Shown here piece after piece: positions 5,201 through 22,063 of a stretch of 45,193 bases of DNA. The position numbers and the translations under genes are program-made. The number at the start of each line of letters is the position of its first letter. The first letter of the stretch is position 1. The stretch comes from Methanobrevibacter sp. (GTDB lineage Archaea > Methanobacteriota > Methanobacteria > Methanobacteriales > Methanobacteriaceae), in contig JAFRFB010000042.1 in NCBI GenBank assembly GCA_017434555.1, forward strand, positions 1-45,193, read 5' to 3'. The notes beneath the pieces are model-generated. The model worked only from the letters and a program-made list of their open reading frames with translations, made no database searches and was not told the DNA's origin.

Positions 5201-5650
5201 TTCATTAACTCCGACTAAGAATGAGTGTCTTCTTGGTGAACTTAATTTTTCACGAATCCCATTTTCATTAAATTCATATTCTACTTTAACATGGGAAAAT
5301 CTCCAATCTTCAAGATTCGGTTCATAAAAAGCAACCAATGCAGAATCATATCTATCTTTAATTAAAGAAGCTATTAAGTTTCTTTGCATAGTTCTAGCAC
5401 GATCCCTAGAAGATTGTTTAGTTAGTTCAATTGCATATAAAGCTATTGAATCACCAGAATCATCTTGATAATCACCTAAGATATAAACTTCATTTTCATA
5501 GCTCCAAAACTCTTTTCTAATCGCTTCAATGCTTCTTGGACGTATATTTGATTTATTAAAAAGTTCTTTTAAAAAATCAACATAATTATCCATATTGAAT
5601 TCATTTTTAAATGTTTTTTCTAAAAGAGATATTGCAGAATTTTTATCCAT
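2291..5650 (-). CDS. Eco57I-class DNA methyltransferase/specificity protein, copy A
   Basis: This 1119-aa protein is complete. An N-terminal part of about 350 aa (nuclease or scaffold type, containing YTPRHIVHFM near 390) precedes the methyltransferase core with DPAVGSGAFP (about residues 468-477) and NPPYV (about 679-683), the signature of N6-adenine methylation. The last ~400 residues should hold the target recognition domain. Length and layout fit the large type IIG-like methylases and PglX-like proteins, but no pglZ or brx genes are visible here, so BREX is not supported. The gene lies 17 bp downstream of the PLD-SNF2 helicase gene, and the two products probably form one restriction-modification complex. 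Stretches of the first half match copy B almost exactly at DNA level (see findings), which suggests recent duplication or gene conversion. Confidence 0.88.
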   Translation of the reverse strand: MDKNSAISLLEKTFKNEFNMDNYVDFLKELFNKSNIRPRSIEAIRKEFWSYENEVYILGDYQDDSGDSIALYAIELTKQSSRDRARTMQRNLIASLIKDRYDSALVAFYEPNLEDWRFSHVKVEYEFNENGIREKLSSPRRHSFLVGVNEPNHTCQSQFLDLLCYEDNIQLKDIEQAFSIENVTDEFFNKYKELFLQLTESLEEVKEKDPKVKSEFDDRKIESSDFAKKLMGQLVFIYFLQKKGWLGVKEYEDWGTGPKDFLRRIYDESMNKGENFFNDVLEHLFYEGFSKKELDNHFSDFGYKVPFLNGGLFEPINNYDWIETDVILDNNIFKEILDTFDQFNFTIKEDEPLEKEVAVDPEMLGKVFENLLEIIDRQSKGAFYTPRHIVHFMCQESLISYLSTNSDVSEDDLRIFITKGDLAVNSIIRANEEKKKYNGQQFTRIELPDSIKEHSNNLEKLLKKVKVIDPAVGSGAFPVGMMNEIVKARYILGLLNMVDDEDINLYKLKKETIENSLYGVDLELSATDITKLRFWLSLIVDEEDNNVINPLPNLDNQIMCGNSLVDSYKDIRLFDDTFIVKDAQQRFGATAAERIFKELEVIKKAYFEESDPEVKQDLKQKIRESKWDFIETYLKDLGKTELLNEIKHYEYDEIKPFFIWELEFSEVFQGMNSGFDIAIGNPPYVKEGRNKNAFDGVRNSPYYQGKMDLWYLFGCRALDLVKENGIVSFIATNNWVTSFGASKFRNKVNDEAKFKYFIDFGNYKAFDTASIQTMIYLMTKDSTDTNYHFKYSKLLVDTITDDHLKSFLYSDNVNELWDKFHAGFNRKMNKDSYFSFMNSEIHDIISKIQSDSSITYLTNKELSQGIVAPQEDLNGRNAKKLNNEYEVGKGIFVLNDEELSQLNLNDNELELIKPYYTTEELKRYYSSKNNKKWIIYTKSDIDNYISNYPNIKAHLDKFSSINTSSNKPYGLHRARKEEIFTNEKIIIARKCEIPTFSYANFDAYVSQTFMIINSKRFNLKFLTGLLNSKLIQFWLKYKGKMQGNNYQLDKEPLQKIPIITDVDENIERKIIMLVDNILEEYKSNTESPNIESFENKLNYLIYELYGITEDEINKIENVL

Positions 5651-5667
5651 TATTCCAGTCCCCTTAA

Positions 5668-8600: not shown

Positions 8601-8871
8601 TTTTGTATTCTGCAGTTGATACGCTTGTAACTTGGGAATCTTCAATTAAATTGAATGTTTGTGAATCAATTCCCATGCCAACTAAAATTCTAATTTGCTT
8701 TGTTTTCTCTAGACTTTTTTGGAGTTTATGAAATCCACTCACATAAAAATATCCTACTAAACAATCAAAGAAATCTGTATCTTTTAAAAGAAGATTAAAC
8801 TCATTAAGCAATGTATTTCCATTTTCATTAGTTATAAAACTATTACTTTTATCACTCATAGGACCACTCAT
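5668..8871 (-). CDS. PLD-type nuclease fused to SNF2/SF2 helicase
   Basis: This 1067-aa protein has an N-terminal phospholipase-D-like nuclease domain: H137-x-K139 in THSKLYI, then GSSNF at 158-162. An SF2/SNF2 translocase follows, with Walker A VGLGKT (281-286), DESH (356-359), SATPFNN (385-391) and the C-terminal helicase lobe, including ATDTLSHGVNL and QRVGRVQRLG near 735-772. It is the first gene of a three-gene minus-strand operon with two methyltransferases and probably supplies translocation and cleavage. Only one HKD motif is present, so the nuclease would need to dimerise, as is known for such single-motif PLD enzymes. Two starts are possible, ATG at 8871 or at 8859; neither has a clear ribosome site. 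An AT-rich TATA-like stretch near 8887-8893 would put the transcript start close to the second. Similar to DrmD/HKD-helicase proteins, but no DISARM partners are seen. Confidence 0.85.
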   Translation of the reverse strand: MSGPMSDKSNSFITNENGNTLLNEFNLLLKDTDFFDCLVGYFYVSGFHKLQKSLEKTKQIRILVGMGIDSQTFNLIEDSQVTSVSTAEYKKKLQKDLIDEMNHSEDNSHVEKGVREFVDWLQTGKLEIRGYKERKTHSKLYIMTFTEDDKDIGRVITGSSNFTQPGLERNLEFNVELTRPEDYYFASDTFEDLWEHSEPISEDFVNTLKNKTWINDNITPYELYLKFIYEFLKDKIWNDQKELDYEIFPEGFKMLEYQRDAVLYARDILYEHGGVFLSDVVGLGKTYMGSLLAQQLRGTTLVIAPPALVKDHNPGGWKRVLREFGVTPMPIVESKGKLDQILEKYDSNSYQNVIIDESHDFRNEDTQRFEYLSQICKGKNVILISATPFNNSPLDLLSQIKLFQPAHNSTLPNPEVRDLEAYFKKLEHRLKIIDRVKHPEAYMEESKKISGEIRENVLKHIMVRRTRKSISKYYAKDLEKHDMEFPNVKKPEPVYYEFDEYTNKVFENSLYKLTKKLTYAKYRPLAEEYQDEPDSRYANSQKMMGNFIKILLVKRLESGSYAFKKSIQNSIDTHKQAIETFKNEKVFYTSRDYNLKIFDLVAEENFAKIDELIEDGKANKYDADDFTDKFLEDMEYDLHILEEISEMWKSVEDYPKRLELVRLLNEDLKDKKVIIFTEFIDTAEDIVELIAKECNGNVKIFTGKSGKEDMDEVLYNFDANIPEARQKNDYRILVATDTLSHGVNLHRSNVIINFDIPWNPTKMMQRVGRVQRLGTKFKNVYTYNFFPTAPIEENIQLKSLAENKIAMFIELLGNDSQLLTEEPIKSYDDFFSIISASDNEEVVDDELRYLREIRDIRDNNPELFKRIEELPIKARVARKSQSNDKYLITLMKKDKFKKVFKSTGNNAVEIDFFEAIKELRANEDEKAFPVDKEFYEYLYQNRFAFDQLLNNPDDEVKLSNNEKFILKYIKYARSCKKLLNHDRDYLYKVKELIEEGHITKNRAKKIKNDLIAIDKKNKDLDKLKRSNLIVGVFYNNISEEDLKTETASCIKECKEEPKQIILSEYFI

Positions 8872-9800: not shown

Positions 9801-9864
9801 TTTCATCACCAGTAATCATTATTTCATTTTCCGCTTATACACTTTTTGCCTAAAAAAGTAGCCA

Positions 9865-9887
9865 TTATATATAAATCTTTATATATT
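9865..9887 (+). promoter_or_regulatory. Capsid-module promoter with shared 18-bp element
   Basis: A TATA box TTATATATAAA lies at 9865-9875. It runs into the 18-bp sequence TATAAATCTTTATATATT (9870-9887), which contains the palindrome TATAAA-TC-TTTATA. The same 18 bp occurs at the early-operon promoter (27457-27474). The expected start site near 9900 leaves a leader of about 36-40 nt carrying AGGAG at 9921-9925. Confidence 0.6.
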
Positions 9888-9935
9888 ATAAATAATAAAT
9901 TAAGTAATATAAAAATTTACAGGAGAATATCAATA

Positions 9936-10424
9936 ATGGCAGATTCTATTATTTTACTTGAAGAGAGAAAAGAAGTAACTACTTTCATCCTGGATGAAGG
10001 TACAGTCACTCCAACCACAGTCACCACTCCGACAGGTGAAACTCCGGGCTATGAATATTCCGGTGCCAAAATCAAAGTGGATGACGCCGTAACATTATCA
10101 GATAACTCAGATATCGGAAAACCGACCGTCAAAAAATACACTGACGAAACCGAAGAAATCATCTTGGGAATTGCAGTTAACGATCCAATCACAATGACCG
10201 GCGGGAGAAGAAAAACCGCAATTTTAGTACTGGGTCATCTTTTCAGATTAAAACTTGCATCAGGGCTTTCAAACATTAACGTTAAAGACAGAATAGCTTT
10301 AACAAGTACTGGGGCTATCAAATCCGATGATGGAGAATACATTGCAATGCATCCGGTAGCCAGTTCAGATGACTACAACTACATTGAAGTGTTCAGACCA
10401 TATGACATAGGTGAGGCCCAATGA
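9936..10424 (+). CDS. Capsid cement/decoration-like protein
   Basis: A 162-aa protein. An upstream in-frame extension exists, but the ATG at 9936 has AGGAG about 10 nt before it and starts the plausible protein (MADSIILLEERKEV). The make-up (Thr/Val/Gly-rich beta segments, YEYSGAKIKVDDAVTLSDNS, ILGIAVNDP) resembles DUF2190/capsid-cement proteins of tailed viruses, which trimerise on the outside of HK97-fold shells. Its stop overlaps the start of the first capsid gene (ATGA at 10421-10424), which means translational coupling. Family assignment rests on resemblance and on position next to the capsid genes. Confidence 0.6.
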   Translation: MADSIILLEERKEVTTFILDEGTVTPTTVTTPTGETPGYEYSGAKIKVDDAVTLSDNSDIGKPTVKKYTDETEEIILGIAVNDPITMTGGRRKTAILVLGHLFRLKLASGLSNINVKDRIALTSTGAIKSDDGEYIAMHPVASSDDYNYIEVFRPYDIGEAQ

Positions 10425-11359
10425 TTACCAAGGCAAACGATACCAAAGTGCAGAATGAGGTAATTGCTCAAACCATTACTGATGAATCAGCTAAAAGATT
10501 AAGATTGGCAAGACTCTTTCCAAAACAGGAAATCAAAGAGAATTCCGATTACTACACTTACTTCCACCAGAACATCAATCTTGACGAGGCAATAAAAAAA
10601 GGACTTCTCGGTGAAGCAAAAGACCTTGCACCTGGAGCTTCTCTACAGGAATTAAACATAAGAAAACCTGTAACAGACACCATCAGCATCGACACAGTCG
10701 GCGGTGTCCTGAACGTTAACAAGGATGTCTTTGACAGCGACAGAATCTCATTTGAAGACCTTTTAGCAGATGTGGCAACACTAATTGCAAACAAAATCGA
10801 ATACAACATCTACGATACCATCGTCAACTCAGCAAAAGTTCCGACATACAATACCACACAGACCGAAGACACCATGGAGGCTTTCGGCCAGTTCGTCATC
10901 AAGGCACAGGAAGCATTCAAGGGCAAATCCGGAGCTGGTGCGGATTTGACAATAATGGTTGAATCATACAGAACATTAAGCTACATCAAACAATTGGCTT
11001 ACGTTAGCAATAAAGCAGTACAACCTGTAGAAGAGATACAGGCCTACTACGGTGTGGACAACATTGACTTTTTGGGAACAACCCATGCCGATGGAGGCTC
11101 AATGCTTGGAGAAAAAGATTACATTGCATTTGATATAAGAAATGCGCCACTCACCGTATTGTATTCCAAATCTTCAGGAACAACCGTTGCACCAATCACA
11201 TCCGATCCGGACATTGCAGATTTCTATCCAATAATTGAAATCATGAGAAAAGATATTTATGATGAGTTGCCACAGTATACAAAGCTGTTTATACAATCTA
11301 AGGTTGGAATATTGTTGAATAAACCACATCTTGCATTGACAGGTACATGCAGGCCATAA
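10421..11359 (+). CDS. HK97-type major capsid protein, copy 1
   Basis: A 312-aa protein. Features typical of encapsulin/HK97-like capsid proteins of archaeal and bacterial tailed viruses include an N-terminal helical arm, a beta-rich stretch (VTDTISIDTVGGVLNVN), a middle spine helix region and a C-terminal VEEIQAYYGVDNIDFLGTT followed by a closing strand and YTKLFIQSKVG. No delta domain or protease cleavage site can be named. It is about half identical to the next gene over its full length (shared LGEAKDLAPGA, LQELN, YYGVDNID, FYPIIE). ATGA coupling to the upstream gene and a GGTGAT site for the next one make a tight operon. Confidence 0.75.
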   Translation: MITKANDTKVQNEVIAQTITDESAKRLRLARLFPKQEIKENSDYYTYFHQNINLDEAIKKGLLGEAKDLAPGASLQELNIRKPVTDTISIDTVGGVLNVNKDVFDSDRISFEDLLADVATLIANKIEYNIYDTIVNSAKVPTYNTTQTEDTMEAFGQFVIKAQEAFKGKSGAGADLTIMVESYRTLSYIKQLAYVSNKAVQPVEEIQAYYGVDNIDFLGTTHADGGSMLGEKDYIAFDIRNAPLTVLYSKSSGTTVAPITSDPDIADFYPIIEIMRKDIYDELPQYTKLFIQSKVGILLNKPHLALTGTCRP

Positions 11360-11370
11360 AGGTGATATTA

Positions 11371-12297
11371 ATGTTGACTAAAGGAAATAATGCTAAAGTT
11401 CAGGATGAAGTGATGGCACAGATTGTTGCAGACACTTCAGCAAAATGGATGAAATTCACAAGACTCATTCCAAAGCAGGAAATCGAGGAAAACTCCCAGT
11501 ACTATACCTACATGTCCCAGAGAGTAAACATCGATGAGATAATCGACAAGGGGCAGTTGGGTGAGGCAAAAGACATTGCACCCGGTGCTACTTTACAGGA
11601 GCTCAACGTCAGAAAGCCTGTAAGCGATACAGTATCTATCGAAACAATAGGAGGAGTGTTGAATGTCTCAGCGCAGATGCTTGATTCCAATTTAATCAGT
11701 GTTCATGACATGCTTCAGGATGTTGGAATACTTATCGGAAGAAGTATTGAGCAGGCTGCCATCGGCATGATTTTAAACAACCCTAAAGTTGCAACATATA
11801 ATTATTCCGCAGGCGATGACAGCGGTGTTACAATACTTAAGGCACAGGAAAAGTTCAAGGAATCAGCAGGAAGCTTCTGTAACTTAAACAGTATGGCCGT
11901 TAACTATAAATCTTTAACTACTCTAAAGTCAGACATGTTTGCTGCCAACAGGCAGGTCGAACCGGTTGAAGCTATTAAATCATATTATGGTGTTGACAAT
12001 ATTGATTTGTTGGGAACTGCAGTCTGTGACGGGGGATCAGAAATAGCTGATAAGACCTACATCGGTATGGACTACCAGAACCCCGGAATGAAATTGTTAT
12101 ACTCAAGAATTTCAGGAACAACAGTAGCGCCGTTAGGTCCTGACGGGGATGTATACGATTTCTATCCTCTGATTGAGTTCATGAGAAAGGACATCCGTGA
12201 TGAGCTGCCGATGTATACAAAGCTCTTCATACTCACCTCAGTGGGTGTCCTGATGAACGCTCCAAACAGAATCATCAAGGGTAAGTTCAGAGCATAG
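11371..12297 (+). CDS. HK97-type major capsid protein, copy 2
   Basis: A 308-aa protein, paralogous to copy 1 along its whole length (KVQDEVMAQ, PKQEIEENSQYYTY, LGEAKDIAPGATLQELN, YYGVDNIDLLGT). The ATG at 11371 is preferred because GGTGAT at 11361-11366 precedes it; an upstream in-frame ATG at 11347 lies inside copy 1. Both copies are intact and of similar length, so neither looks like a decaying duplicate. A mixed shell, or shells of two sizes, is possible. A hairpin terminator follows at 12321-12345. Confidence 0.75.
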   Translation: MLTKGNNAKVQDEVMAQIVADTSAKWMKFTRLIPKQEIEENSQYYTYMSQRVNIDEIIDKGQLGEAKDIAPGATLQELNVRKPVSDTVSIETIGGVLNVSAQMLDSNLISVHDMLQDVGILIGRSIEQAAIGMILNNPKVATYNYSAGDDSGVTILKAQEKFKESAGSFCNLNSMAVNYKSLTTLKSDMFAANRQVEPVEAIKSYYGVDNIDLLGTAVCDGGSEIADKTYIGMDYQNPGMKLLYSRISGTTVAPLGPDGDVYDFYPLIEFMRKDIRDELPMYTKLFILTSVGVLMNAPNRIIKGKFRA

Positions 12298-12320
12298 AAC
12301 CATATTTTATCTCCTAAATA

Positions 12321-12366
12321 TTAGTGAAGCTTCAGGCTTCACTAACTCTTCTGCTCAAATTTTTTT
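12321..12366 (+). terminator. Hairpin and T-tract after the capsid genes
   Basis: A perfect 10-bp stem TTAGTGAAGC / GCTTCACTAA (12321-12330, 12336-12345) encloses a 5-nt loop, and a T-run follows near 12358-12366. It lies 24 bp after the second capsid gene and would end the capsid transcript. Confidence 0.65.
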
Positions 12367-12404
12367 ATGCAATAATCGCCATATTATATATCAGAGGATA
12401 TAAA

Positions 12405-12809
12405 ATGAAATTAATATTAGATTCTGAAAATTCACATCCGACAACAATAACAGTCAAAGGAAAAGAAATAACATTGCTCTTGATTGAATCCAGCATATTA
12501 ATTGATTCATCACAGATAGCCAGGATTTTTGACAAAAAGGAAAAGACAGTAGCAACCAAAGTCCAGAAATCCAAACTGGAGAAATACGAAACAGAAAACG
12601 TTAAGTTACTCAAAAATTACGGACTGATGCATCCGGAAGCAATAAAACCAAGACCATTCTATGATTTAAGGCAGATGCTTGAAGGGCCGGCTTATTATTA
12701 CTTCAAAAAAGAGGATGAAACTGATTTGATTGATGTTATTGTCAGAGTTGCCATCGGAAAGCACCGTGAGTGGATTCACAACAGAAGTCTTGAAAAATCC
12801 GGTTTTTAA
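12405..12809 (+). CDS. Hypothetical protein, possible virus-encoded regulator
   Basis: A 134-aa protein that starts at the ATG at 12405 behind a GAGG site (12394-12397). The stretch ILIDSSQIARIFDKKEKTV looks like a helix-turn-helix or an antirepressor-like DNA-binding start, followed by a basic linker and a compact C-terminal part (YYYFKKEDETDLIDVIVRVA). This is a guess from pattern only; no family is recognised. It lies between the capsid terminator and the lysin gene, in the same direction, with base composition like its neighbours. A small regulator of late genes or a minor virion protein are both possible. Confidence 0.55.
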   Translation: MKLILDSENSHPTTITVKGKEITLLLIESSILIDSSQIARIFDKKEKTVATKVQKSKLEKYETENVKLLKNYGLMHPEAIKPRPFYDLRQMLEGPAYYYFKKEDETDLIDVIVRVAIGKHREWIHNRSLEKSGF

Positions 12810-12990
12810 AACGCTTTCATCTATATTCCATTTTTAAAAGCAAATCGATATTTGTGATGATTGCCGTTAATGTAAATAGTGATTCATTAAATTATTTTTA
12901 AAAATGTTTCTGTCACTTTTATTGATGCTATCTTTATGAAATCATGGGGTGTTTCGCCACCTGTGGGACACACTATTTTTTATTATATAA

Positions 12991-13035: not shown

Positions 13036-13845
13036 ATGTCAAATGAAAATATCAGCTGGACAAGCTTTTGCCAGGCCATGAATTCAATCGGCTACTGGCT
13101 CATCCAGAACAAAAAGAAATACAAGAAACGTGACCATTACCAGATATTGACATTGAAAGGTAACTGCAAGGACATTGAAAAGAAAGCTAAAAAGCTCGGA
13201 ACTGACAAGCTCGTTGCAATGTATGTAATGGCCTTGATTAAGGATAACAAGTCTTTGGATTTCCTTCCGAATTATGTCATGCTTAAAAATGGCGAGAAAA
13301 TCGATAAGGCTGAATATGTGGACATGGCCATAAGAACAGAAGCATACATCAGAGCAAACGGGAGATTGCCTGCAATAGTCTACAGGAAATCAACACTGCC
13401 GGATTATAAAGATTCCACAATGAAGCTGTTTGTGAAAACCTTTAATTTCAAGGGAAATACGATTGACGAAGCTTTAGCCGTCATTTCAAAAGTCAAATTG
13501 TACAGTAAATACTTTGATTCACAAAAGACAGATAAGAAAACAATAACGGATGCTAAGGCAGGTAAAGGTTCCAACTGCGTTGACTGGGGACAGGTCTATT
13601 ATCGCATTGCCAAAAGCTTAGGCTATGAGGTGCAGTTTGTTCATGTCAGATGCAGAGTCTCAGGAACCGGCCATATCAGATTGAGACTGAAACATAAAAA
13701 GCACACTGGAGGAAACTGGATTAATCGTGATCCTGCTGCAGTGGCTGATACTACATCCGGAAATGTCAGGGCAATCTGGTGTGAAGATGGATATCTAATA
13801 GCTATTGACCCATCATGGATTTTTACAGATTTGTATAGCAGTTAA
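13036..13845 (+). CDS. Pseudomurein endoisopeptidase (PeiW/PeiR-like lysin)
   Basis: A 269-aa protein. The C-terminal half is a transglutaminase-like cysteine peptidase with the expected triad: C181 in SNCVDWGQ, H213 in GTGHIRLRL and D232 in NRDPAAV. Near residues 93-115, MAIRTEAYIRANGRLPAIVY matches a pseudomurein-binding repeat (xxNGRLPxxV type); only one such repeat is clear. Enzymes of this family (PeiW, PeiP, PeiR) cut the peptide cross-link of pseudomurein and lyse methanogen cells from inside. No signal peptide or holin is seen beside it. It points to a host with a pseudomurein wall and to a virus origin of this block. Confidence 0.85.
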   Translation: MSNENISWTSFCQAMNSIGYWLIQNKKKYKKRDHYQILTLKGNCKDIEKKAKKLGTDKLVAMYVMALIKDNKSLDFLPNYVMLKNGEKIDKAEYVDMAIRTEAYIRANGRLPAIVYRKSTLPDYKDSTMKLFVKTFNFKGNTIDEALAVISKVKLYSKYFDSQKTDKKTITDAKAGKGSNCVDWGQVYYRIAKSLGYEVQFVHVRCRVSGTGHIRLRLKHKKHTGGNWINRDPAAVADTTSGNVRAIWCEDGYLIAIDPSWIFTDLYSS

Positions 13846-13848: not shown

Positions 13849-15069
13849 TTATGTTAACTCTTTTTCTTTTTTTAATTCAACTATATTCTTAATGAATTTC
13901 CTTTTCATCTCTTCAAAGTTGGTATTGTCAGTAGTCATCGTATGAATATAAATTGCATCTAAAAATTCTGTGAAATATTTGATATTCAACATTCGACCAG
14001 CATTTTTAAAATAGAAATCATATATCTGGCTATAATTAATAATTGTATATTTATCACCATCTACATAATTACTCAGATTTATTTGGTTATAATCCGGTGC
14101 GAAAATATAAAAATTCAAATTTTTATCACTATACTTTTCAGATACTTCTTTATAGTATTTGCTTAATTGACTTTCTTTTTTTCCGGAGGATTTTGATTTT
14201 TCACCATTAATCTTTGATTTAATTTTGTTTTCAATAATTATTACTGAATCCTCATTTTCTATCAACAGATCAATATTATCCTTTTCACGTACAATTCTAT
14301 AATTAATTTTAAAATTGCCAATACCTAAAACTTCATTTACAAAATCTTTAAAAACATCTTTCTTCTGATTGAAGATATATGAAAAAAGATTGGAAATAAT
14401 TATTTCATCATCTTCCTTTTTAATTACAGATAAAAATCCTTCATGTGATTCATATGTATAAATTTCATCCAAATCTATTTTTGTAGTTGTATTTTCTTCA
14501 TTCCAGATTGTTGAATCATTTAACAGTTTTTTAAACACTTCATAATCCTGTGGAAAATCATCGTCAGAATAATACATTTTCAGACTTTGTGATGAAAAAT
14601 GTTTTTCAGGTAAAAAATAATGATTTTCATATTTATAACATTTAGATTCATCTTCAATGAGAAATACAGATTTATTTACTGCTCTCAGCTTATCTGCTTT
14701 AAATGTTATTAGAATTTCAGCATTACCATTTTCATAGATATCAGATAATAAAACATTTCCATAAGTAATATTATGTTTGTTAATATATTCCTTTTGATCA
14801 TTAAGTTCTTCTTCAAAATTATTTTTCTTATAATAAACTTGTTGAAGATTTTCTGCCTTTGCAACTACTTCTAAAACTCCCGGTTCAACACGTTTAACTA
14901 GGAGGATAGCTTGAACAGAATCATTAGCTTCTTTTTTTATTTTACCATTATGATTTATATAAATATAATTGGACCCATTATCGTCCTTAAATAGATTTAT
15001 AACTTCATGCCCAATATTTTCATCCAAGTAACTGCCAGCATACATACGATTTAAAATTATTGTATTCAT
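13849..15069 (-). CDS. PD-(D/E)XK nuclease family protein
   Basis: A 406-aa protein. Around residues 262-280, NIDLLIENEDSVIIIENKI gives the D-x(n)-E-x-K pattern of the PD-(D/E)XK fold; the PDDEXK_4 family is the best fit, with GKKESQLSKYYKEV after it as usual there. The first ~230 residues form a separate domain that I do not recognise. It is the last gene of a four-gene minus-strand operon, 17 bp after the previous stop, with AGGTG before its ATG. The end nearly touches the convergent lysin gene. Proteins of this family are often found in defence islands, but function here is inferred. Confidence 0.7.
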   Translation of the reverse strand: MNTIILNRMYAGSYLDENIGHEVINLFKDDNGSNYIYINHNGKIKKEANDSVQAILLVKRVEPGVLEVVAKAENLQQVYYKKNNFEEELNDQKEYINKHNITYGNVLLSDIYENGNAEILITFKADKLRAVNKSVFLIEDESKCYKYENHYFLPEKHFSSQSLKMYYSDDDFPQDYEVFKKLLNDSTIWNEENTTTKIDLDEIYTYESHEGFLSVIKKEDDEIIISNLFSYIFNQKKDVFKDFVNEVLGIGNFKINYRIVREKDNIDLLIENEDSVIIIENKIKSKINGEKSKSSGKKESQLSKYYKEVSEKYSDKNLNFYIFAPDYNQINLSNYVDGDKYTIINYSQIYDFYFKNAGRMLNIKYFTEFLDAIYIHTMTTDNTNFEEMKRKFIKNIVELKKEKELT

Positions 15070-15086
15070 GATTGCACCTATTAATT

Positions 15087-15872
15087 TTATTCAAATTCAA
15101 AAACAAGAGGCAAGTGGTCGCTTAAAGCAATCCATTCGCTTTTGTCTAGAATTTCAAATTTATTTGGCAAATTATCATCTGGTTTTCTCCAGAAATCAAT
15201 CAGTTCTGTTTTTTTAATAATTTCTTCATTGGCATAGAAATAATCAAGATAGAAAGGCACATTCAAATGTTTAGCTTGGAAAAAACTAAATTTACTTTCT
15301 TTTCCATTTTCTTCACCAGATAACTTATGGTATAAACTGTATAATCCTTTGCTGTTTAATTTCAAATCAAGATTAGTATGGTCTTTAGCATTGCCGTTTT
15401 TATCTTTAGCCCTGTGCTTAGGATTGAATACAGCATTGCTGTTGAAGTCTCCGCACATGATGAGATTTTCATCAAATAATTTTTCATGATTTGCATCGAA
15501 ATAGTCATGAATCATTTCTACATATTTTGGCATTGCCCAGACCGCAAGCAGATTAAATGAATCGTTGACTCTTAAAGGAATGAAATTTTTAAAATCTTCA
15601 TTTAATCCTTCAATTTTTTCTAATTTGACATTTTCCTTTGCAAATATTCCAAGACCTTTGTAATGGTAATCTCCAATCCAATAATAATTGTCCCCTGCTA
15701 AATCATCTACTGTTTTTTTGTAGTTTTTATACTTTGGTTTAGGGTCTCTTGGGTTTTCACATTCACAAATCACATAAATATCTGCATCCAGATAATTTTG
15801 GGAATTCTCATCAGTAATGGACATTATTTTTTCCCTAAAATTCATGTTGCAGTTCCAGCTGACTATCTTCAT
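15087..15872 (-). CDS. Endonuclease/exonuclease/phosphatase (EEP) family protein
   Basis: A 261-aa protein with the EEP/DNase I-like signature: SWNCN (5-9), acidic E37/E39 in ICECEN, GDFNSN (141-146), a D210-containing LDYFYAN and the C-terminal SDHLPL (251-256) with the catalytic His. The family includes metal-dependent DNases, AP endonucleases and phosphodiesterases. The start at 15872 has GGTGAG at 15882-15877; that site overlaps the upstream stop codon, so translation is coupled. It is the third gene of the operon. The substrate cannot be told from sequence; DNA or a nucleotide second messenger are both possible. Confidence 0.78.
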   Translation of the reverse strand: MKIVSWNCNMNFREKIMSITDENSQNYLDADIYVICECENPRDPKPKYKNYKKTVDDLAGDNYYWIGDYHYKGLGIFAKENVKLEKIEGLNEDFKNFIPLRVNDSFNLLAVWAMPKYVEMIHDYFDANHEKLFDENLIMCGDFNSNAVFNPKHRAKDKNGNAKDHTNLDLKLNSKGLYSLYHKLSGEENGKESKFSFFQAKHLNVPFYLDYFYANEEIIKKTELIDFWRKPDDNLPNKFEILDKSEWIALSDHLPLVFEFE

Positions 15873-15881
15873 ATCTCTCAC

Positions 15882-16421
15882 CTATATAAAATCTCTTTTT
15901 GATCTTGCTTCTATGCCGAATCTTTTATACATTTCTCTTGTATCCTCATTGGATTCAATAGCCAGATATTTGTTCGGATCATCACCATGAGTTGGCAAAA
16001 CTGCCTTTTCAAGCCAATACCTTTTAAGTTCAGGCGGCCTTTTACCAAAATTCCAATAGGATTCTTCAATTTTTAAATCAGTATTTTCTTCAATATGTTT
16101 AAGAGAATCAAAAGAGGTATAATAAGGACTTGCTGTGATTAGAATCACATAGTTATCCTTGATTTTATTTACCAGTTCATGTTCATACTGGCGATTATAA
16201 ATCTTTTGTGGTAATCTGTCATGCCTTATTTTCCAGGAATTGGAAATAAGAGTGTAGTTTAAATCCAAAAGAATGATTTTATCTTTTGGAATTGGAAGCT
16301 TATCCTTTAAAATTATTTCTTTTCCTGTTTCTTCAATTAGTTTCTGGCCACAGTTCAGGCAATATTTTTCTTTGGCTCTGTTTTCTGTCTGGCATGCAGG
16401 ACATGTATTATACTCAATCAT
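15882..16421 (-). CDS. Zinc-ribbon plus HAD-like domain protein
   Basis: About 179 aa from the ATG at 16421, which overlaps the upstream stop (ATGATTGA); an ATG further upstream is also possible. The N-terminus carries a zinc ribbon (CPAC then CLNC). A HAD-like fold follows: ILLDLNYTLI resembles motif I, but the second Asp of DxDxT is Asn, and ILITAS fits motif II. The change may reduce phosphatase activity, so a binding or altered catalytic role is possible. The C-terminal part (YLAIESNEDTREMYKRFG) fits HAD motif IV loosely. It is the second gene in the nuclease operon. Confidence 0.6.
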   Translation of the reverse strand: MIEYNTCPACQTENRAKEKYCLNCGQKLIEETGKEIILKDKLPIPKDKIILLDLNYTLISNSWKIRHDRLPQKIYNRQYEHELVNKIKDNYVILITASPYYTSFDSLKHIEENTDLKIEESYWNFGKRPPELKRYWLEKAVLPTHGDDPNKYLAIESNEDTREMYKRFGIEARSKRDFI

Positions 16422-17232
16422 CTTTATCATCATCTTTTTGTAAATAAACCTGTCTGAATAAATCTATAGCATAGTCAATTTCATCTTTGGAGTTTAATAT
16501 TAATTCATAATTTGCTTTTGCACCTGTTGAGATATTTGAAATGTCTCTTGTTTTATTTTCAATGTCTTTAAGGTCATCTGTATGGTAATGGATTTTTGCC
16601 GGATTATCAAGGCGGAAAATGCATGCTATCTGATTATTTGCCCTGAAAGATACGGCTTTAACTAAATATATTAATTTTATATCATCAAATTCATCCATAA
16701 CTTTTTCTTTAAAGTTAAGGTATAATTCACATGTTTCCTGAGGCTTGTCGGATAATATTTTTTCTTCTGTTAATTCCAGCTCTTCAGGTTCTGTCATTAA
16801 CTCTTTGGTTTCACCTGTTTTCATGTTTTCATAAATCACTTTACCATCATCATATAGCGATATTTCCCAAATCTCAAAAGGGTCATTGGTATTGCTGATT
16901 TGGTTTGGAGTGAATTCCGGTCCAATAATCATTATATGTGTATTTTCAAACTCAATGTCATTTCTGTTATCTAAACGGCCTGCAAAGTATTCTGAATTAT
17001 TTTTAACTAAATCATAATACTCCTGTGCCTGATTAATAACATTTAAATTCAATTCATTTTTATATTCGATGATTACGAAGGCTTTTGTTTTTTCATCGAA
17101 TGCAAGATTGTCTATTCTTAATCTGTTAAGCTGTATTTCTGAAGCGACAAATTCAAGGCCAAATAAGTTTTTTAAATTCCTTTCGGTTAATTTATGAAGA
17201 GTATACTCGCTGTCAAATTTTATCTTTTTCAT
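16414..17232 (-). CDS. PD-(D/E)XK-like protein with DUF5655-type C-terminus
   Basis: About 272 aa from the ATG at 17232 (MKKIKF); in-frame starts up to 17256 exist and no ribosome site decides between them. The first ~70 residues hold LRIDNLAF (D41) and FVIIEYKN (E56, K58), the D...ExK core of restriction-endonuclease-like folds. The C-terminal ~110 residues (ELYLNFKEKV, YLVKAVSFRANNQIACIFRL) resemble DUF5655, which often follows such nuclease domains. It is the first gene of the four-gene operon. The divergent DUF4268 gene and repeat element A lie upstream. Probable DNA nuclease; target unknown. Confidence 0.65.
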   Translation of the reverse strand: MKKIKFDSEYTLHKLTERNLKNLFGLEFVASEIQLNRLRIDNLAFDEKTKAFVIIEYKNELNLNVINQAQEYYDLVKNNSEYFAGRLDNRNDIEFENTHIMIIGPEFTPNQISNTNDPFEIWEISLYDDGKVIYENMKTGETKELMTEPEELELTEEKILSDKPQETCELYLNFKEKVMDEFDDIKLIYLVKAVSFRANNQIACIFRLDNPAKIHYHTDDLKDIENKTRDISNISTGAKANYELILNSKDEIDYAIDLFRQVYLQKDDDKDD

Positions 17233-17316
17233 ATGAATCATTTTATGAATTATCATATTTAAGCTTCATTATACTCACAAATTGCAAACATATTATTTTA
17301 AAAGGTTAAATCAACA

Positions 17317-17422
17317 ACATTAACATCTAAGAATAGCTATTCCAAAATAGCTTTCTAAAATCCTTCCATATATATCCAAGTTCAAAATCAGATATGATTT
17401 TCAAAAACCCTTCCGTTAATGT
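17317..17422 (+). repeat. ~106-bp intergenic element, copy A
   Basis: Ends are ACATTAAC (17317-17324) and GTTAATGT (17415-17422). Inside are a TATATA core (17368-17375), TTTTCAAAAACCC and the start of the right arm, in the same order and nearly the same spacing as copies B and C. Copy A is the most diverged. It sits between the divergent nuclease operon and DUF4268 gene; another ACATTAAC is at 17474-17481. Confidence 0.5.
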
Positions 17423-17524
17423 CAAAGTGTTGCTCACAATATTAAAATAAAAATAATACATTCAATTTAATTAACATTAACATCAATAATATAACAAGGA
17501 ACATTTACTCGTGGTGTGAATATT

Positions 17525-18457
17525 ATGAAATTGGGTAAATTAGAAAAAATTAAAGATTTGCGTTCTGTTTGGAAACATGAAGCAACTGATTTCACTACAT
17601 GGTTATCAGATGAAGAAAACTTAGCCACTTTAGGTGAAGAAATAGGTATTGATATTGAATTACTGTCCACTGAAGCAAAAACTGGTTCATTCAGTACAGA
17701 TATTCTTGCAGTTGAGGCAAATACCAATAATAAAATTATAATTGAAAATCAGCTTGAAGCAACAGACCATGACCACTTGGGTAAAATTATTACTTATGCT
17801 TCAGGTCATGACGCTAAAACTATTATTTGGATTGTTAAAGAAGCACGTGAAGAACATCGTCAAGCTATTGACTGGCTAAATGAACATACTGATGAAGAAA
17901 TAAATATTTTCTTATGTAAAATCGAATTATGGAAAATTGGCAATTCAGAGATAGCTCCTAAATTCCAAGTAGTTTCCAGTCCAAATAATTGGAGTAAAAC
18001 AGTTAAAAGAAGTTTGGATAATGAGATGAGTGCAACTGCAATGCTGCAATATGATTATTGGACTAAAGTTAAAGACGAGATTGATAAAAATTATCCAACG
18101 TTTAATTCTAGAAAACCTATAGGGCAACATTGGTATGATATAGCTATTGGCAGTAGCTTAGCAAATATTAGTCTTCATGTTATTGCTAGAAGGAATGAAA
18201 TAAAAGTTGTACTTTGGATTCCAGACAGCAAAGAATTATTTGATTATCTTTATAATATGAAAGATGAAATCGAATCTCAATTAGGATATGAGTTAGATTG
18301 GATTAGTTCAGATAATAATAAGTCATCAAGCATTGTAATAGTTAAAAATGCAGATGTTCATAATGAATTTAAGTGGGATGAGAATATTAAATGGCATCTT
18401 ACTAAAGCATCTGAATTTTATGAGGCATTTTCAGAAAGAGTTAAAAATTTTAAATAA
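17525..18457 (+). CDS. DUF4268 / restriction-endonuclease-like protein
   Basis: A 310-aa protein. The N-terminal domain has SFSTDILAVE (D59) and IIIENQLEATDHDHLGK (E74-x-Q76), which is the ExQ form of the PD-(D/E)XK core, known from similar nucleases. The order is typical of DUF4268 proteins: EATDHDHLGK, then TIIWIVKEA, then the C-terminal WYDIAIG and VVLWI stretch. The start at 17525 is preceded by GGTGTGA; a GTG at 17516 lies within that site. It is transcribed away from the nuclease operon and followed by the SIMPL gene. Many DUF4268 genes stand alone in defence islands; function is not known for certain. Confidence 0.75.
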   Translation: MKLGKLEKIKDLRSVWKHEATDFTTWLSDEENLATLGEEIGIDIELLSTEAKTGSFSTDILAVEANTNNKIIIENQLEATDHDHLGKIITYASGHDAKTIIWIVKEAREEHRQAIDWLNEHTDEEINIFLCKIELWKIGNSEIAPKFQVVSSPNNWSKTVKRSLDNEMSATAMLQYDYWTKVKDEIDKNYPTFNSRKPIGQHWYDIAIGSSLANISLHVIARRNEIKVVLWIPDSKELFDYLYNMKDEIESQLGYELDWISSDNNKSSSIVIVKNADVHNEFKWDENIKWHLTKASEFYEAFSERVKNFK

Positions 18458-18496
18458 AAATTAATTTCAATTTTAAATAAATGTTGTGTGGTTTAA

Positions 18497-19168
18497 ATGA
18501 GAACAATTACAATTAAAGGTAGGGGAAAATCCGTTAAAGATCCTGACTTGGCGATAATTAACATTTCAGTTTCAATTGTGAAAGAAAAGTTTGATGATGC
18601 TTTAGATTCTATGAATGACTTAATAGACGAACTAAAAGGTTCATTACAAAATATAGGATTTGAAGAAAATGATTTAAAAACAATCACGTTTAACATAGAA
18701 CAAAAATATGATTATGTTGAAAAAGGTATTATCAATAAAGAGTATAAAAATAAATTTGTGGGATTTCAAATTAATCATAATCTGAAATTAGAGTTTGATT
18801 TTGATAATAACAAACTTTCTGAAGTATTTCATTGTCTAAAAAATTTTGATGAGAAATTAGAATTCAGATTACATTTTTCTGTTAAAGATAAGGAAAACAT
18901 GAAAAAAGAAGTTTTAATCAATGCTACTGAAAATGCAAAATATAAAGCTGAAATTTTAGCTGAAGCTTCATCAGCGAAATTAGGTGATTTGATAAAAATT
19001 GATTATGACTGGGTAGATTTTAATTTTGTATCCCGTACTAATCTTGATGTTTATGATGATTATGATGCTTATGAAATATCTCCAAGAGCATTATTCAAAA
19101 CAACAAACATAACTCCGGAAGAAATTGAAATTTCAGATAATGTAACATTTGTTTGGGAACTAATTTAA
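18497..19168 (+). CDS. SIMPL (DUF541) domain protein
   Basis: A 223-aa protein that starts directly with the SIMPL core: ITIKGRGKSVKDPDLAIINI, then a KFDDALDSMNDLID helix, YVEKG and a central VGFQINHNLKLEFD strand. The C-terminal NATENAKYKAEILAEASSAK helix is characteristic of YggE-like proteins. Most family members are secreted or periplasmic; no signal peptide is seen here, so this one is probably cytoplasmic. The family has been linked to stress tolerance, with no known enzyme activity. It lies 39 bp after the DUF4268 gene and may be cotranscribed with it. Confidence 0.75.
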   Translation: MRTITIKGRGKSVKDPDLAIINISVSIVKEKFDDALDSMNDLIDELKGSLQNIGFEENDLKTITFNIEQKYDYVEKGIINKEYKNKFVGFQINHNLKLEFDFDNNKLSEVFHCLKNFDEKLEFRLHFSVKDKENMKKEVLINATENAKYKAEILAEASSAKLGDLIKIDYDWVDFNFVSRTNLDVYDDYDAYEISPRALFKTTNITPEEIEISDNVTFVWELI

Positions 19169-19257
19169 ATTGAGTTTTAAAATCTGTATAATAATAATTT
19201 TATATAATTGAAATAATAAAATATTATATTAATTATTATATACAGGTTGTAATAGCT

Positions 19258-19455
19258 ATGGCCAATATAAATAATACATCATCCTACATGGATGAAGACA
19301 AAAAGCAAATTATCAAAGAGTCCAATTATACCTATAGGGATGCTCTTGAAGTTTCAGCCTATCTCATTGAAGCGGGCAAGTTCGAAAGGTTCTACAAGGA
19401 AATGCAAATCTACGACCTTCAAAAGGAACTTGACGAAATGGGCGACGAAGAATAG
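19258..19455 (+). CDS. Small helical protein, paralogue 1
   Basis: A 65-aa protein of unknown function. The middle part, KQIIKESNYTYRDALEVSAY followed by LIEAGKFERF, aligns with KKIVEESSFTHKDAYELGAM and LIAIGDAEDT in the gene at 19589, so the two are paralogues. The tail is acidic. An AT-rich TATA-like region lies at 19200-19240. It stands just upstream of the terminase genes; small proteins in this place may help packaging or regulation, but this is inference. Confidence 0.6.
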   Translation: MANINNTSSYMDEDKKQIIKESNYTYRDALEVSAYLIEAGKFERFYKEMQIYDLQKELDEMGDEE

Positions 19456-19511
19456 CTTCAAAAAATAAATCTCACGTATAAACTCTTAAAAAAACTTTTT
19501 TTCATAGGTGA

Positions 19512-19547
19512 AAGTAATAATTTATTATTACTTTTATATTTTTTTTA
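19512..19547 (+). terminator. Perfect hairpin with T-tract
   Basis: The 10-bp arms AAGTAATAAT / ATTATTACTT (19512-19521, 19524-19533) have a 2-nt loop and are followed by a T-rich run to 19547. It ends the 19258 transcript and separates it from the next promoter. Confidence 0.6.
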
Positions 19548-19555
19548 TAATAAAA

Positions 19556-19573
19556 TTTTATATATAATATATA
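19556..19573 (+). promoter_or_regulatory. TATA box, likely leaderless transcript
   Basis: An AT-rich TATATATAATATATA-type box is centred near 19562, about 27 bp before the ATG at 19589. No Shine-Dalgarno site lies in between, so transcription probably starts at or next to the start codon. Confidence 0.5.
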
Positions 19574-19588
19574 ATAAATATATGCATT

Positions 19589-19837
19589 ATGTCACTAGAA
19601 AAAACCAACATCAGTGCAAGAGTTGAAATAACACTCAAAAAAATAGTAGAAGAATCTAGTTTTACACACAAGGACGCATACGAACTCGGAGCTATGCTAA
19701 TAGCTATCGGTGATGCAGAAGATACAATAACACTAATACATAACAATCCCAATTATCAAAAAACAATGAAACAAACTGAATACAGATTAATCGAAGCTAG
19801 AAAAGAAGAGCTTGAAAGAGAGTTAAGAGATTTATAA
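19589..19837 (+). CDS. Small helical protein, paralogue 2
   Basis: An 82-aa protein, paralogous to the 19258 product in the ~30-residue core (KIVEESSFTHKDAYELGAML), with a longer, charged C-terminal helix (LIEARKEELERELRDL). The start is placed at the ATG at 19589, consistent with a leaderless transcript from the TATA box upstream. The next gene (terminase small subunit) begins 14 bp after its stop with a GGAGAG site, so all three terminase-side genes are in one transcript. Function is unknown; a DNA-packaging accessory role is possible from context. Confidence 0.65.
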   Translation: MSLEKTNISARVEITLKKIVEESSFTHKDAYELGAMLIAIGDAEDTITLIHNNPNYQKTMKQTEYRLIEARKEELERELRDL

Positions 19838-19851
19838 GGAGAGCCGTCACC

Positions 19852-20661
19852 ATGGGTAGAGGAAATTCAGATGTAATCTATTTTCTAGAACAGCACGAAC
19901 AGGAAATAATAAACTGCTGCAGAAAAGGAATGAGCAACAAAGAAGTCAGAGAACTTCTCAAAACAAAATACGGAAGAGAAGTAGCAGACAATACCTACAG
20001 GAAATTCAAAGCAAAACTAAACCTAACAAAAGGAGATTTCCTGGAAACACTCTTAGATGAAATCAAAGTAATGAAAACATCCGGTGCAACAGATGCAAGT
20101 GTGAGAAGATGGCTTGATGAGGAACATGACCTTGAAGTGAGCAGGGCAACATTTTCAAGATTCAAAAAGAAATATCATCTAACGGATAAGGACAAGGACC
20201 CAAGAGAGCGAAATGCAGAAGCATTAACCAATAGGGCAATTGCACAAAAGCAGATTACAGACAACAGCATCCATCAGGACAATATTGATTTGGCTATTGA
20301 TACAATCTTACAGCAGCAGGTAACTGACATCAAAACAGGACTTGAAAACTTGGATAAAATTACCAAAAATGCTGTTGGCCTTGAAATTGATTTTGAAAAG
20401 CTCGATCAGGAAGTGAGATACAATGCCAATGAGAAAAGCTTAGCCAGATATTTAATCGACCTAACAGAACTGAAGATTCGTTACTTGGAACTGTCAGTCA
20501 GAGCATTTGAAGCCAAAAACAAATTATTCAAAGATGAAATGGATAGACTATTCAAAAACCGCATGTTAGAGTTGGAAGACAAGAAAATAGAAATCTCACA
20601 AAAGGACATTATGGAAGAAATAGAAATCCTTGCAAAACAGATTGACGATAACAATGTATGA
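19852..20661 (+). CDS. Terminase small subunit candidate
   Basis: A 269-aa protein. It contains two helix-turn-helix-like repeats: NKEVRELLKTKYGREVADNT with YRKFKAKLNL, and ASVRRWLDEEHDLEVSRAT with FSRFKKKYHL. A long helical region near 140-260 could oligomerise. Size, DNA-binding repeats and position directly before the large subunit fit a small terminase that recognises the packaging site; sequence alone does not prove it. AAGGAGAG at 19836-19843 is the ribosome site. Its stop overlaps the next start by 8 bp (ATGTATGA). Confidence 0.65.
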   Translation: MGRGNSDVIYFLEQHEQEIINCCRKGMSNKEVRELLKTKYGREVADNTYRKFKAKLNLTKGDFLETLLDEIKVMKTSGATDASVRRWLDEEHDLEVSRATFSRFKKKYHLTDKDKDPRERNAEALTNRAIAQKQITDNSIHQDNIDLAIDTILQQQVTDIKTGLENLDKITKNAVGLEIDFEKLDQEVRYNANEKSLARYLIDLTELKIRYLELSVRAFEAKNKLFKDEMDRLFKNRMLELEDKKIEISQKDIMEEIEILAKQIDDNNV

Positions 20662-22063
20662 TGAAAACAATGAATTCTATTTAATCGCTAAAGATAAAGC
20701 TATTCTTCAGAAGTGTGTATATGAAAATCCGTATATTCCATTCAATCCATTTCCAAAGCAGGCTGAAATGATACTGGCTCAGGAAAAGGAAGTGTTGATT
20801 GGTGGTGCTGCAGGAGGTTCCAAATCAACAAGTCTTTTAATGAGAGCACTTTTTTATGTTCAGGATGATGCCAACGAATATCATGCCCTCATATTGAGAC
20901 GTACATTATCTGACTTGAAGCGTAAAGGAGCTTTAATTCACAAGGCAAGTCAATGGTTAAATCGAAAGGAAATTCAAAATAATCAAAGCATCAAACCAAA
21001 GTGGGATGGAACCGAACACTCATGGACATTTCCCAATGGAAATTCACTGACCTTTGGATATTTGAGAAACATCAATGACCTCGACACATATCAGGGTTCG
21101 GAATATCAGTTCATAGGTATTGATGAGCTGACCCAATTGGAGAGGTTTAAATATATCTATATGAGGTCAAGGGTAAGGAAAACAAAAGATAATAAATTAC
21201 CGACACAGCTGATGGCATCATCAAATCCAGGAAAGCGTGGAAACAAATGGGTACGTGAAAGATTCATAGAAAAAATAGACACTGACATTCAGGACAAATC
21301 ACAAATAAGATTCATCAGCTCAAGCTATTTGGATAACATTTACTTAGACCGGAAGGATTATGAAGAATACCTTATGGGTCTTGACAGAGTAACAAGGGAA
21401 CAGTTAATGAACGGTAACTGGTATGCTTCAGTCAAAGGTCAGCTATTTGATGAATCCGACTTCCACATAATATCTCATGACGAATACATGAAAATACCAA
21501 TCGTTAGAGTTATCAGATATTGGGATCTTGCAGCAACGGAAGTACTGAACGATGACAAACTGAGAGGAAGTGACCCTGATTATACTGCAGGTGTTTTGTT
21601 AGCTAAAGATCTAAACGGCAATATCTACATCCTTGATTCATATGAGTTTCAGCTGGAATCAAGAAACCTAATCAATGAAATATTAAATACTGCAGCACGT
21701 GACAAGTCAGACGTCCAATACATTGAACTTGACGGAAGCACAGGCAAAAACTTCGGTTTATTAATCATTGATGAACTTAACAGAAGAGGATTTACTACAG
21801 GAACCGGTAACTCAAGAGAAAATAAAGTTGACCGTGCAAGAAGAGTTTCAGCAGATATTCAGAAGAACGGAATATTCCTGGTTGGAAAGGATAGAACAGG
21901 GTTCACAAAAAAATGGGCTATGGAATTTCTAGAAAAAATTACTGCTTATCCTAATGAAGCCATTCATGACGATTGTGTTGTTGCTTTCACTGGAGCTTAT
22001 GAAAAAATAGTTTCTGAAGTTCAAACTCAAAGAGTTAATGTGGATAGGTGGTATTCCACATAA
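20654..22063 (+). CDS. terL: Phage terminase large subunit (packaging ATPase-nuclease)
   Basis: A 469-aa protein from the ATG at 20654. The ATPase domain has Walker A GGAAGGSKST (50-59), Walker B FIGIDE (153-158) and a coupling motif ASSNPGKRG. The C-terminal RNase H-like nuclease has IRYWDLAATE (first Asp near 287), YIELDGSTG and AIHDDCVVAF (near 445). All key residues are present, so the enzyme looks active. It packages DNA into empty heads through a portal. The portal gene normally next to it is absent here; an SDR gene follows instead. This is the clearest evidence for a tailed-virus origin of the block. Confidence 0.9.
   Translation: MYDENNEFYLIAKDKAILQKCVYENPYIPFNPFPKQAEMILAQEKEVLIGGAAGGSKSTSLLMRALFYVQDDANEYHALILRRTLSDLKRKGALIHKASQWLNRKEIQNNQSIKPKWDGTEHSWTFPNGNSLTFGYLRNINDLDTYQGSEYQFIGIDELTQLERFKYIYMRSRVRKTKDNKLPTQLMASSNPGKRGNKWVRERFIEKIDTDIQDKSQIRFISSSYLDNIYLDRKDYEEYLMGLDRVTREQLMNGNWYASVKGQLFDESDFHIISHDEYMKIPIVRVIRYWDLAATEVLNDDKLRGSDPDYTAGVLLAKDLNGNIYILDSYEFQLESRNLINEILNTAARDKSDVQYIELDGSTGKNFGLLIIDELNRRGFTTGTGNSRENKVDRARRVSADIQKNGIFLVGKDRTGFTKKWAMEFLEKITAYPNEAIHDDCVVAFTGAYEKIVSEVQTQRVNVDRWYST

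What the first reader, a model, noticed from the sequence alone, without database searches (positions are those of the whole stretch)
13849..17232. Four-gene operon with three nuclease-like proteins and a zinc-ribbon/HAD protein
The order DUF5655-type PD-(D/E)XK, zinc-ribbon/HAD, EEP nuclease, PDDEXK_4 is tightly coupled by overlaps (ATGATTGA; ribosome site over the stop). A divergent DUF4268 nuclease-like gene lies beside it. I know no defence system with this set. Its AT-rich composition differs from the virus genes on both sides.
Basis: partly seen in the sequence, partly recalled or inferred. Interest (0 to 1): 0.6.

Follow-up and report, generated by a model that had tools for sequence, protein, structure and literature searches.

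The report
Viral cassette of three archaeal nucleases
A virus hidden in the genome of a gut methane-producing archaeon carries, in a slot where related viruses carry other anti-virus or unrelated genes, a compact four-gene set of DNA-cutting and DNA-end-processing enzymes; its first three genes keep company in many related genomes, so it looks like an undescribed anti-virus system, although nobody has tested it.

Summary
The operon is real. A (PD-(D/E)XK + DUF5655), B (zinc ribbon + HAD), C (EEP) and D (PD-(D/E)XK) lie head to tail with an 8-nt overlap, a ribosome site over a stop, and a 17-bp gap. A, B and C recur together across Methanobacteriaceae far beyond chance, in at least five arrangements; B is also found fused to an ExoIII-type EEP domain. 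D occurs in only three genomes. Folds: A resembles EndoMS/NucS, B the T4 Pnkp 3'-phosphatase (but with Asn at the +2 catalytic site), C ExoIII/AP endonucleases. Empty alleles show the four genes are one ~3.4 kb cassette in the lysin-to-terminase slot of a vir323-type tailed provirus. The divergent DUF4268 gene (E, with a SIMPL gene) is a separate cassette. The same slot elsewhere holds GmrSD, type II R-M, DitA, a distant A-C pair, non-defence genes, or nothing. A ~155-bp virus-specific repeat separates cassettes. Best reading: a provirus-borne nuclease/end-processing defence module, an archaeal counterpart of P2/P4 defence hotspots. A, D and E match PADLOC candidate families (PDC-S18, S26, S11); the A-B-C combination matches no named system in the libraries searched. 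Antiviral function and biochemistry are untested.

The parts
16414..17232 (-). A: PD-(D/E)XK nuclease domain + C-terminal DUF5655 domain (PADLOC PDC-S18); ORF open to 17256
   Evidence: PDC-S18 E 5.8e-49; DUF5655 E 1.6e-3, below Pfam cut-off; AF2 pLDDT 89.9; Foldseek EndoMS-dsDNA 5gke E 3.2e-4, 2vld E 1.6e-3; D49, E64, K66 invariant in 9 homologues
15882..16433 (-). B: N-terminal zinc ribbon (C11-x2-C14, C25-x2-C28) + HAD domain like the T4 Pnkp 3'-phosphatase; likely start 16421
   Evidence: AF2 pLDDT 92.5; Foldseek 5uj0 T4 Pnkp 3' phosphatase E 6e-5, TM(target) 0.68; phrog_32036 E 5.7e-22; D57-x-N59-x-T61, T100, K137, E160-S-N162 invariant in 19 homologues
15087..15881 (-). C: endonuclease/exonuclease/phosphatase (EEP) of the ExoIII/AP-endonuclease type; likely ATG 15872
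   Evidence: Exo_endo_phos E 7.7e-7; profile matches ExoIII 5j8n E 1e-9 and exodeoxyribonuclease 3fzi E 3e-8; N10, E40, D145, N147, D213, D255, H256 invariant
13849..15069 (-). D: PD-(D/E)XK nuclease-like protein of the PDC-S26 kind; rare accessory gene
   Evidence: PDC-S26 E 4e-11; NIDLLIE...IIIENK motif read in the sequence; in 3 of 139 genomes
13876..17315 (.). Extent of the A-B-C-D cassette: stretch absent from empty alleles of the slot (approximate; the left junction lies in a T-rich tract, so D's last codons overlap it)
   Evidence: L124 and L130 empty alleles align up to about 13875 and resume at about 17316
17316..17469 (+). ~155-bp virus-specific dispersed repeat between the A-D cassette and the E-SIMPL cassette; TATA-like centre between inverted ACATTAAC/GTTAATGT arms
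   Evidence: nhmmer E 1.6e-27; 23-copy alignment; a copy 61 bp upstream of A in G060, L021
17516..18457 (+). E: DUF4268 protein (PDC-S11), separate cassette together with the SIMPL gene 18497-19168
   Evidence: second gap of the empty-allele alignment, 17472-19176
13036..13845 (+). Left border of the slot: pseudomurein endoisopeptidase (PeiW-like lysin) of the provirus
   Evidence: Peptidase_C71 E 2.1e-6, PMBR E 1.8e-8; 83% identical to that of vir323
19258..22063 (+). Right border of the slot: small virus genes (19258, 19589), terminase small and large subunits
   Evidence: TerL phrog_979 E 2e-83; 92% identical to vir323 TerL
9846..12809 (+). Structural genes of the same provirus (preneck-like, two HK97-type major head proteins, small gene)
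   Evidence: 85-88% identical to vir323 genes annotated as major head protein and preneck protein

Best explanation
A provirus-borne defence cassette. Shown: A-B-C are a recurrent, independently shuffled set in gut methanogens; here they form one operon with D, inserted as a discrete cassette in an accessory slot of a vir323-type tailed provirus where related proviruses carry recognised restriction or defence genes, other genes, or nothing. Inferred mechanism: the resident virus uses the operon to protect its host, and so itself, from competing viruses. A, an EndoMS/NucS-like PD-(D/E)XK enzyme, binds through its DUF5655 domain and incises foreign or abnormal DNA. C, an ExoIII/AP-endonuclease-like enzyme, degrades or opens DNA at the breaks. 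B, a zinc-ribbon protein with a Pnkp-phosphatase-like HAD domain, binds or trims 3' ends so that C can act (it is even fused to an EEP domain in relatives). D adds a second PD-(D/E)XK activity as an optional extra. How self is spared (target modification, replication intermediates, free ends) is unknown.
For: Co-occurrence: of 25 A genes in 139 genomes, 12 have B and 10 have C within 3 kb (expected 0.07 each); of 20 stand-alone B genes, 12 have A and 11 have C (expected 0.07); the loci are related, so the probabilities overstate. Arrangements: A-B-C-D, A-B with divergent C, B-A-C, C-B, A-C, and an EEP-ZnR-HAD fusion, beside C in L038, L039, L041, L087. Folds point to nucleic acid incision and 3'-end processing. 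Purifying selection. Slot: relatives carry GmrSD/HEC-06, type II REase + MTase, DitA, PDC-M11B, distant A-C. A-B lies directly after McrBC in L024; fused B + C precede HsdR-HsdM beside a viral terminase in L087; A-type PDC-S18 and a PDC-S26 protein are neighbours inside a type I R-M operon on an Acinetobacter plasmid.
Against: No antiviral activity has been measured. The slot also carries non-defence genes (membrane proteins in vir323; MarR + flavodoxin + hydrolase-like genes in L135/L139), so position alone is not proof. Neighbours of A/B/C loci hit more PADLOC families than random regions (169 against 70), but the control contained a CRISPR locus and the difference is modest. B has Asn where HAD phosphatases usually have the general-acid Asp, so it may not be a phosphatase. 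PD-(D/E)XK and EEP cuts normally leave 3'-OH (general knowledge), so the need for a 3'-phosphatase is unexplained. D is not conserved with the set. A is split by a frameshift in G060 and in L028.
Confidence: 0.5

Rival explanations
1. A DNA-repair module, not immunity: an EndoMS-like nuclease, an AP-endonuclease-like EEP and a Pnkp-like end-cleaning protein repair damaged host or virus DNA (base-excision and break repair).
For: All three folds are nearest to repair enzymes: EndoMS/NucS, ExoIII/APE1, T4 Pnkp phosphatase. The fusion of an ExoIII-type EEP with B resembles a repair polypeptide.
Against: Patchy distribution, cassette exchange in a virus slot, neighbourhoods with McrBC, type I R-M and GmrSD, A belonging to a family collected as a defence candidate. 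More distant ExoIII-like genes are present elsewhere in these genomes, e.g. G000:C108.
Confidence: 0.25
2. A counter-defence or virus-fitness module: the provirus uses the nucleases to cripple host defences, degrade host DNA or heal ends cut by host nucleases (as T4 Pnkp heals tRNA breaks) during its own lytic cycle.
For: It is carried by a provirus; B resembles the T4 Pnkp phosphatase, and its family includes phage proteins.
Against: A-B-C also occur at loci where no vir323-type gene was found in the fetched flanks (e.g. L022, L023, L031) and beside R-M genes; the cassette is on the strand opposite to the virus late genes with its own upstream TATA-like repeat, as morons are; the related virus vir323 lacks it.
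Confidence: 0.13
3. Several independent selfish or defence genes (PDC-S18, PDC-S26, an EEP gene, B) that merely accumulate in the same variable slot and have no joint function.
For: A, C and B each occur alone in other genomes; D and E are clearly separate additions.
Against: Overlapping reading frames here, repeated re-association of the same three families in different orders, and B fused to an EEP domain.
Confidence: 0.12

Closest known systems
Defence hotspots of P2-like phages and P4-like satellites (PMC9122126)
   Same: A conserved position between core virus genes that holds interchangeable cassettes, anti-virus genes among them, or nothing
   Different: Archaeal tailed provirus of methanogens; cassettes separated by a virus-specific ~155-bp repeat; anti-virus activity not tested
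PADLOC single-gene candidates PDC-S18, PDC-S26, PDC-S11
   Same: A, D and E match these models (E 5.8e-49, 4e-11, 1.5e-117)
   Different: Here A is tied to B and C, which PADLOC does not model; PDCs are described as mostly unvalidated (PMC12988326); D matches over the nuclease part only
EndoMS/NucS mismatch endonuclease
   Same: A's nuclease domain is nearest to it in fold (5gke E 3.2e-4)
   Different: TM only about 0.3; extra DUF5655 domain; NCBIfam NucS score 11 against a cut-off of 216
T4 polynucleotide kinase/phosphatase, 3'-phosphatase domain
   Same: Fold of B (5uj0 E 6e-5, TM(target) 0.68)
   Different: No kinase; zinc ribbon instead; DxN in place of DxD at the active site, invariant
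Exonuclease III / AP endonuclease
   Same: Sequence profile and catalytic N, E, D, N, D, H
   Different: Divergent subfamily (NCBIfam xth score 26 against 99)

Membership tests
PDC-S18 (PADLOC) for A | Full-length match to the family HMM | tested here: met
   E 5.8e-49 over residues 5-271 of 280, profile 10-301 of 302
PDC-S26 (PADLOC) for D | Full-length match to the family HMM | tested here: inconclusive
   E 4e-11 but only over residues 256-351, profile 96-177 of 400; no significant BLASTP match to a clear PDC-S26 protein, E 0.22
PDC-S11 (PADLOC) for E | Full-length match to the family HMM | tested here: met
   E 1.5e-117 over residues 1-310
NucS/EndoMS for A | NucS equivalog score and NucS domain order (N-terminal DNA-binding domain, C-terminal nuclease) | tested here: not met
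   NCBIfam PRK04247 score 11.3 against cut-off 216; here the nuclease domain is N-terminal
T4 Pnkp-type 3'-phosphatase for B | HAD fold of the Pnkp type | tested here: met
   Foldseek best match 5uj0, E 6e-5
T4 Pnkp-type 3'-phosphatase for B | DxD catalytic pair of HAD phosphatases | tested here: not met
   D57-L-N59 invariant in 19 of 19; also DLN in the phage relatives L090 and L091
Exonuclease III (xth) equivalog for C | Score above the NCBIfam cut-off | tested here: not met
   26.4 against 99.05
EEP superfamily for C | Exo_endo_phos match and catalytic residues | tested here: met
   29.5 bits, cut-off 24.5; residues
Named multi-gene defence system | Match of the gene set to a PADLOC system | tested here: not met
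   B only LmuB E 0.008; C none. DefenseFinder was not available
Provirus defence hotspot (P2/P4-like) | Conserved flanks, variable content, empty alleles | tested here: met
   22 slots compared, 5 empty
Provirus defence hotspot (P2/P4-like) | Contents protect against viruses | not testable with these tools
   needs virus challenge

The most novel reading that the evidence does not exclude
A-B-C is a new three-component immune system in which a nuclease and an ExoIII-like enzyme work with a zinc-ribbon 3'-end-recognising HAD protein, spread among archaeal viruses in a cassette array whose ~155-bp promoter/operator-like repeat serves both to switch cassettes on in the silent provirus and to exchange them by recombination.
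Probability: 0.25. Interest if true: 0.78.

Novelty: new variant of a known kind. Interest (0 to 1): 0.57.

Why it matters
Gut methanogens are major methane producers, and their viruses and defences are poorly known; a recent survey finds few recognised defence systems in archaea (PMC12988326). This gives a concrete, testable candidate system (A-B-C), a defined slot in a common provirus family in which to look for more, and a repeat that marks cassette borders. It would also extend the prophage/satellite defence-hotspot principle to archaeal proviruses in a well-resolved form.

Tried and rejected
B in distant taxa: genome, viral and phage scans found full B only in Methanobacteriaceae; the viral hits outside are stand-alone HADs of about 150 aa. 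C in plasmids: scattered single genes without A or B beside them. All four genes as one conserved system: rejected, D is too rare. E as part of the operon's system: rejected, separate insertion. D as a homologue of the Acinetobacter PDC-S26 protein by BLASTP: not significant. PADLOC enrichment of neighbours against random regions: suggestive only. PDB sequence search for A, B, D and E: nothing useful. Rfam on the provirus: nothing. The repeat as a stable RNA: not consistent (z -5.6 for one copy and strand, about -1.3 to -1.7 for the others). Papers naming DUF5655: none held.
Full report
Observation. The four - strand ORFs are present and tightly packed. B's likely start (16421) overlaps A's stop as ATGATTGA; GGTGAG lies over B's TAG stop before C's ATG (15872); D starts 17 bp after C's stop with AGGTG in front of its ATG. 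The operon is AT-rich (GC 0.25-0.32) against 0.36-0.41 for the virus genes on both sides. Low dN/dS between the window and G060 (A 0.10-0.15, B 0.12, C 0.08, D 0.25) shows purifying selection.

What the proteins are. A matches PADLOC PDC-S18 over its whole length (E 5.8e-49). Its model (pLDDT 89.9) has an N-terminal nuclease domain whose best PDB matches are EndoMS-dsDNA and the P. abyssi repair endonuclease; D49, E64 and K66 are invariant. YjbR-like structures also appear in the match list; that they correspond to the C-terminal DUF5655 domain is inference. B has a four-cysteine zinc ribbon and a HAD domain (pLDDT 92.5) whose best match is the T4 Pnkp 3'-phosphatase. It belongs with phage family phrog_32036, whose other members weakly match polynucleotide kinase families. 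All 19 relatives have DLNYT, i.e. Asn in place of the usual second Asp, so catalysis is uncertain. C is an EEP enzyme nearest to ExoIII with the catalytic residues kept. D matches PDC-S26 only in its PD-(D/E)XK part.

Co-occurrence. In 139 genomes of the family, A, B and C were mapped separately. Of 25 A genes, 12 have B and 10 have C within 3 kb (0.07 expected each); of 20 stand-alone B genes, 12 have A and 11 have C. The genomes are related, so these probabilities are too small, but the gene order differs: A-B-C-D (window, L021), A-B with divergent C (L025, L026, L028, L029, L031), B-A-C (L037), C-B (L042), A-C (L093, L094). In eight further loci B is the C-terminal half of an EEP-ZnR-HAD polypeptide of about 420 aa, beside C in L038, L039, L041 and in the viral contig L087. 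D is found with A-B-C only in the window and G060, and alone in G070. B was not found in full outside Methanobacteriaceae.

Setting. The flanking genes are mostly 80-93% identical to Caudoviricetes sp. vir323, a 34,179-bp circular virus genome assigned to Methanobacteriales. The window's copy has the head, lysin and terminase genes but no portal or tail genes, so it is partial. In relatives the order head genes - small gene - lysin - [slot] - small genes - TerS - TerL is constant and the slot varies from about 150 bp to 9 kb. Of 22 slots compared, five are empty. Others hold GmrSD/HEC-06 (L121, L127), a type II REase + MTase (L146, a second copy in the same genome), DitA (L128), a Schlafen AlbA_2 gene (L123), PDC-M11B (L140), a distant A-C pair (L094), or non-defence genes (vir323; L135, L139). 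Not all contents were run against PADLOC.

Cassette structure. Two empty alleles align to the window in three blocks: up to about 13875, 17316-17471, and from about 19177. Hence the A-B-C-D operon (about 13876-17315) is one insertion and E + SIMPL (about 17472-19176) another. The middle block is a ~155-bp repeat present at 12794-12922, 17316-17469, 27991-28120 (-) and 30575-30730 (-) in the window, between cassettes in other slots, and 61 bp upstream of A in G060. In the window's own genome it was found only on contigs C21, C49 and C136; C21 and C49 hold these proviruses, C136 was not examined. It has inverted ACATTAAC/GTTAATGT arms around a TATA-like centre. A promoter/operator role and a role in recombination are inference.

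Function. What is shown: a conserved nucleolytic set, under selection, moved as a cassette in a virus slot with a strong share of restriction and defence genes, and elsewhere next to McrBC (L024), type I R-M genes (L087) and, for the A and D families, inside a type I R-M operon on an Acinetobacter plasmid. What is inferred: it protects the lysogen against other viruses by cutting DNA (A, D) and processing ends (C, B). The main rival is DNA repair, since each fold is nearest to a repair enzyme. The gap in the mechanism is why a 3'-end (phosphatase-like) protein is needed and how self DNA is spared.

Known or new. A and E fall in, and D near, existing PADLOC candidate families; the guilt-by-embedding candidates are described as mostly unvalidated (PMC12988326). 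Proviruses of other archaea are known to carry PARIS, R-M, DISARM and Dnd genes (PMC11705971), and bacterial P2/P4 hotspots are established (PMC9122126). The A-B-C set and this slot with its repeat were not found described in the papers held, but that library is partial and DefenseFinder could not be run. I therefore rate it a new variant of a known kind.

Noticed in passing
window 12794-12922, 17316-17469, 27991-28120, 30575-30730: A ~155-bp virus-specific dispersed repeat with inverted ACATTAAC/GTTAATGT arms around a TATA-like centre; it separates accessory cassettes in many related proviruses.
   Followed up: partly
window 28185-30529: Second repeat-bracketed gene block near the integrase, with an AAA_14/DUF4143 ATPase matching PADLOC PDC-S01 (E 2.5e-35) and a GNAT-like gene.
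   Followed up: partly
L033:8580-9836 and L034-L036, L038-L041, L087:3002-4333: EEP-ZnR-HAD fusion of about 420 aa: an ExoIII-type domain joined to the B domain; in L033 a dGTPase gene (PADLOC dGTPase E 3e-75) lies downstream.
   Followed up: partly
L136:10899-14009 and L021:16831-18256: The lysin (PeiW-like) gene is interrupted: in L136 it is split by about 2.3 kb, in G060 it is cut at about the same codon with a reverse-transcriptase-like ORF beyond, suggesting a group II intron at a fixed site.
   Followed up: no
L123, L128, L130: Reduced elements with integrase - lysin - slot - TerS - TerL and no head genes in the fetched stretch; possibly satellites of the vir323-type viruses.
   Followed up: no
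window 2291-8871: Left of the provirus: an SNF2/PLD-type helicase and a type IIG-like REase-MTase (PADLOC E 1.5e-151), an R-M or DISARM-like pair.
   Followed up: partly
L024:8132-9403 and L023:13879-14331: A ~150-aa protein (TIEKFKTDRKWRYLWLQYINGVNLKHHCQ...) with no Pfam or PADLOC match lies between A and B in L023 and is fused to the N-terminus of A in L024, perhaps a further component.
   Followed up: partly
L089-L092 (IMG/VR contigs): Stand-alone HAD proteins of about 150-170 aa (read in L090 and L091) with the same LDLNYTLI motif in apparently bacterial phage contigs; a Gordonia phage homologue is annotated as phosphatase.
   Followed up: partly
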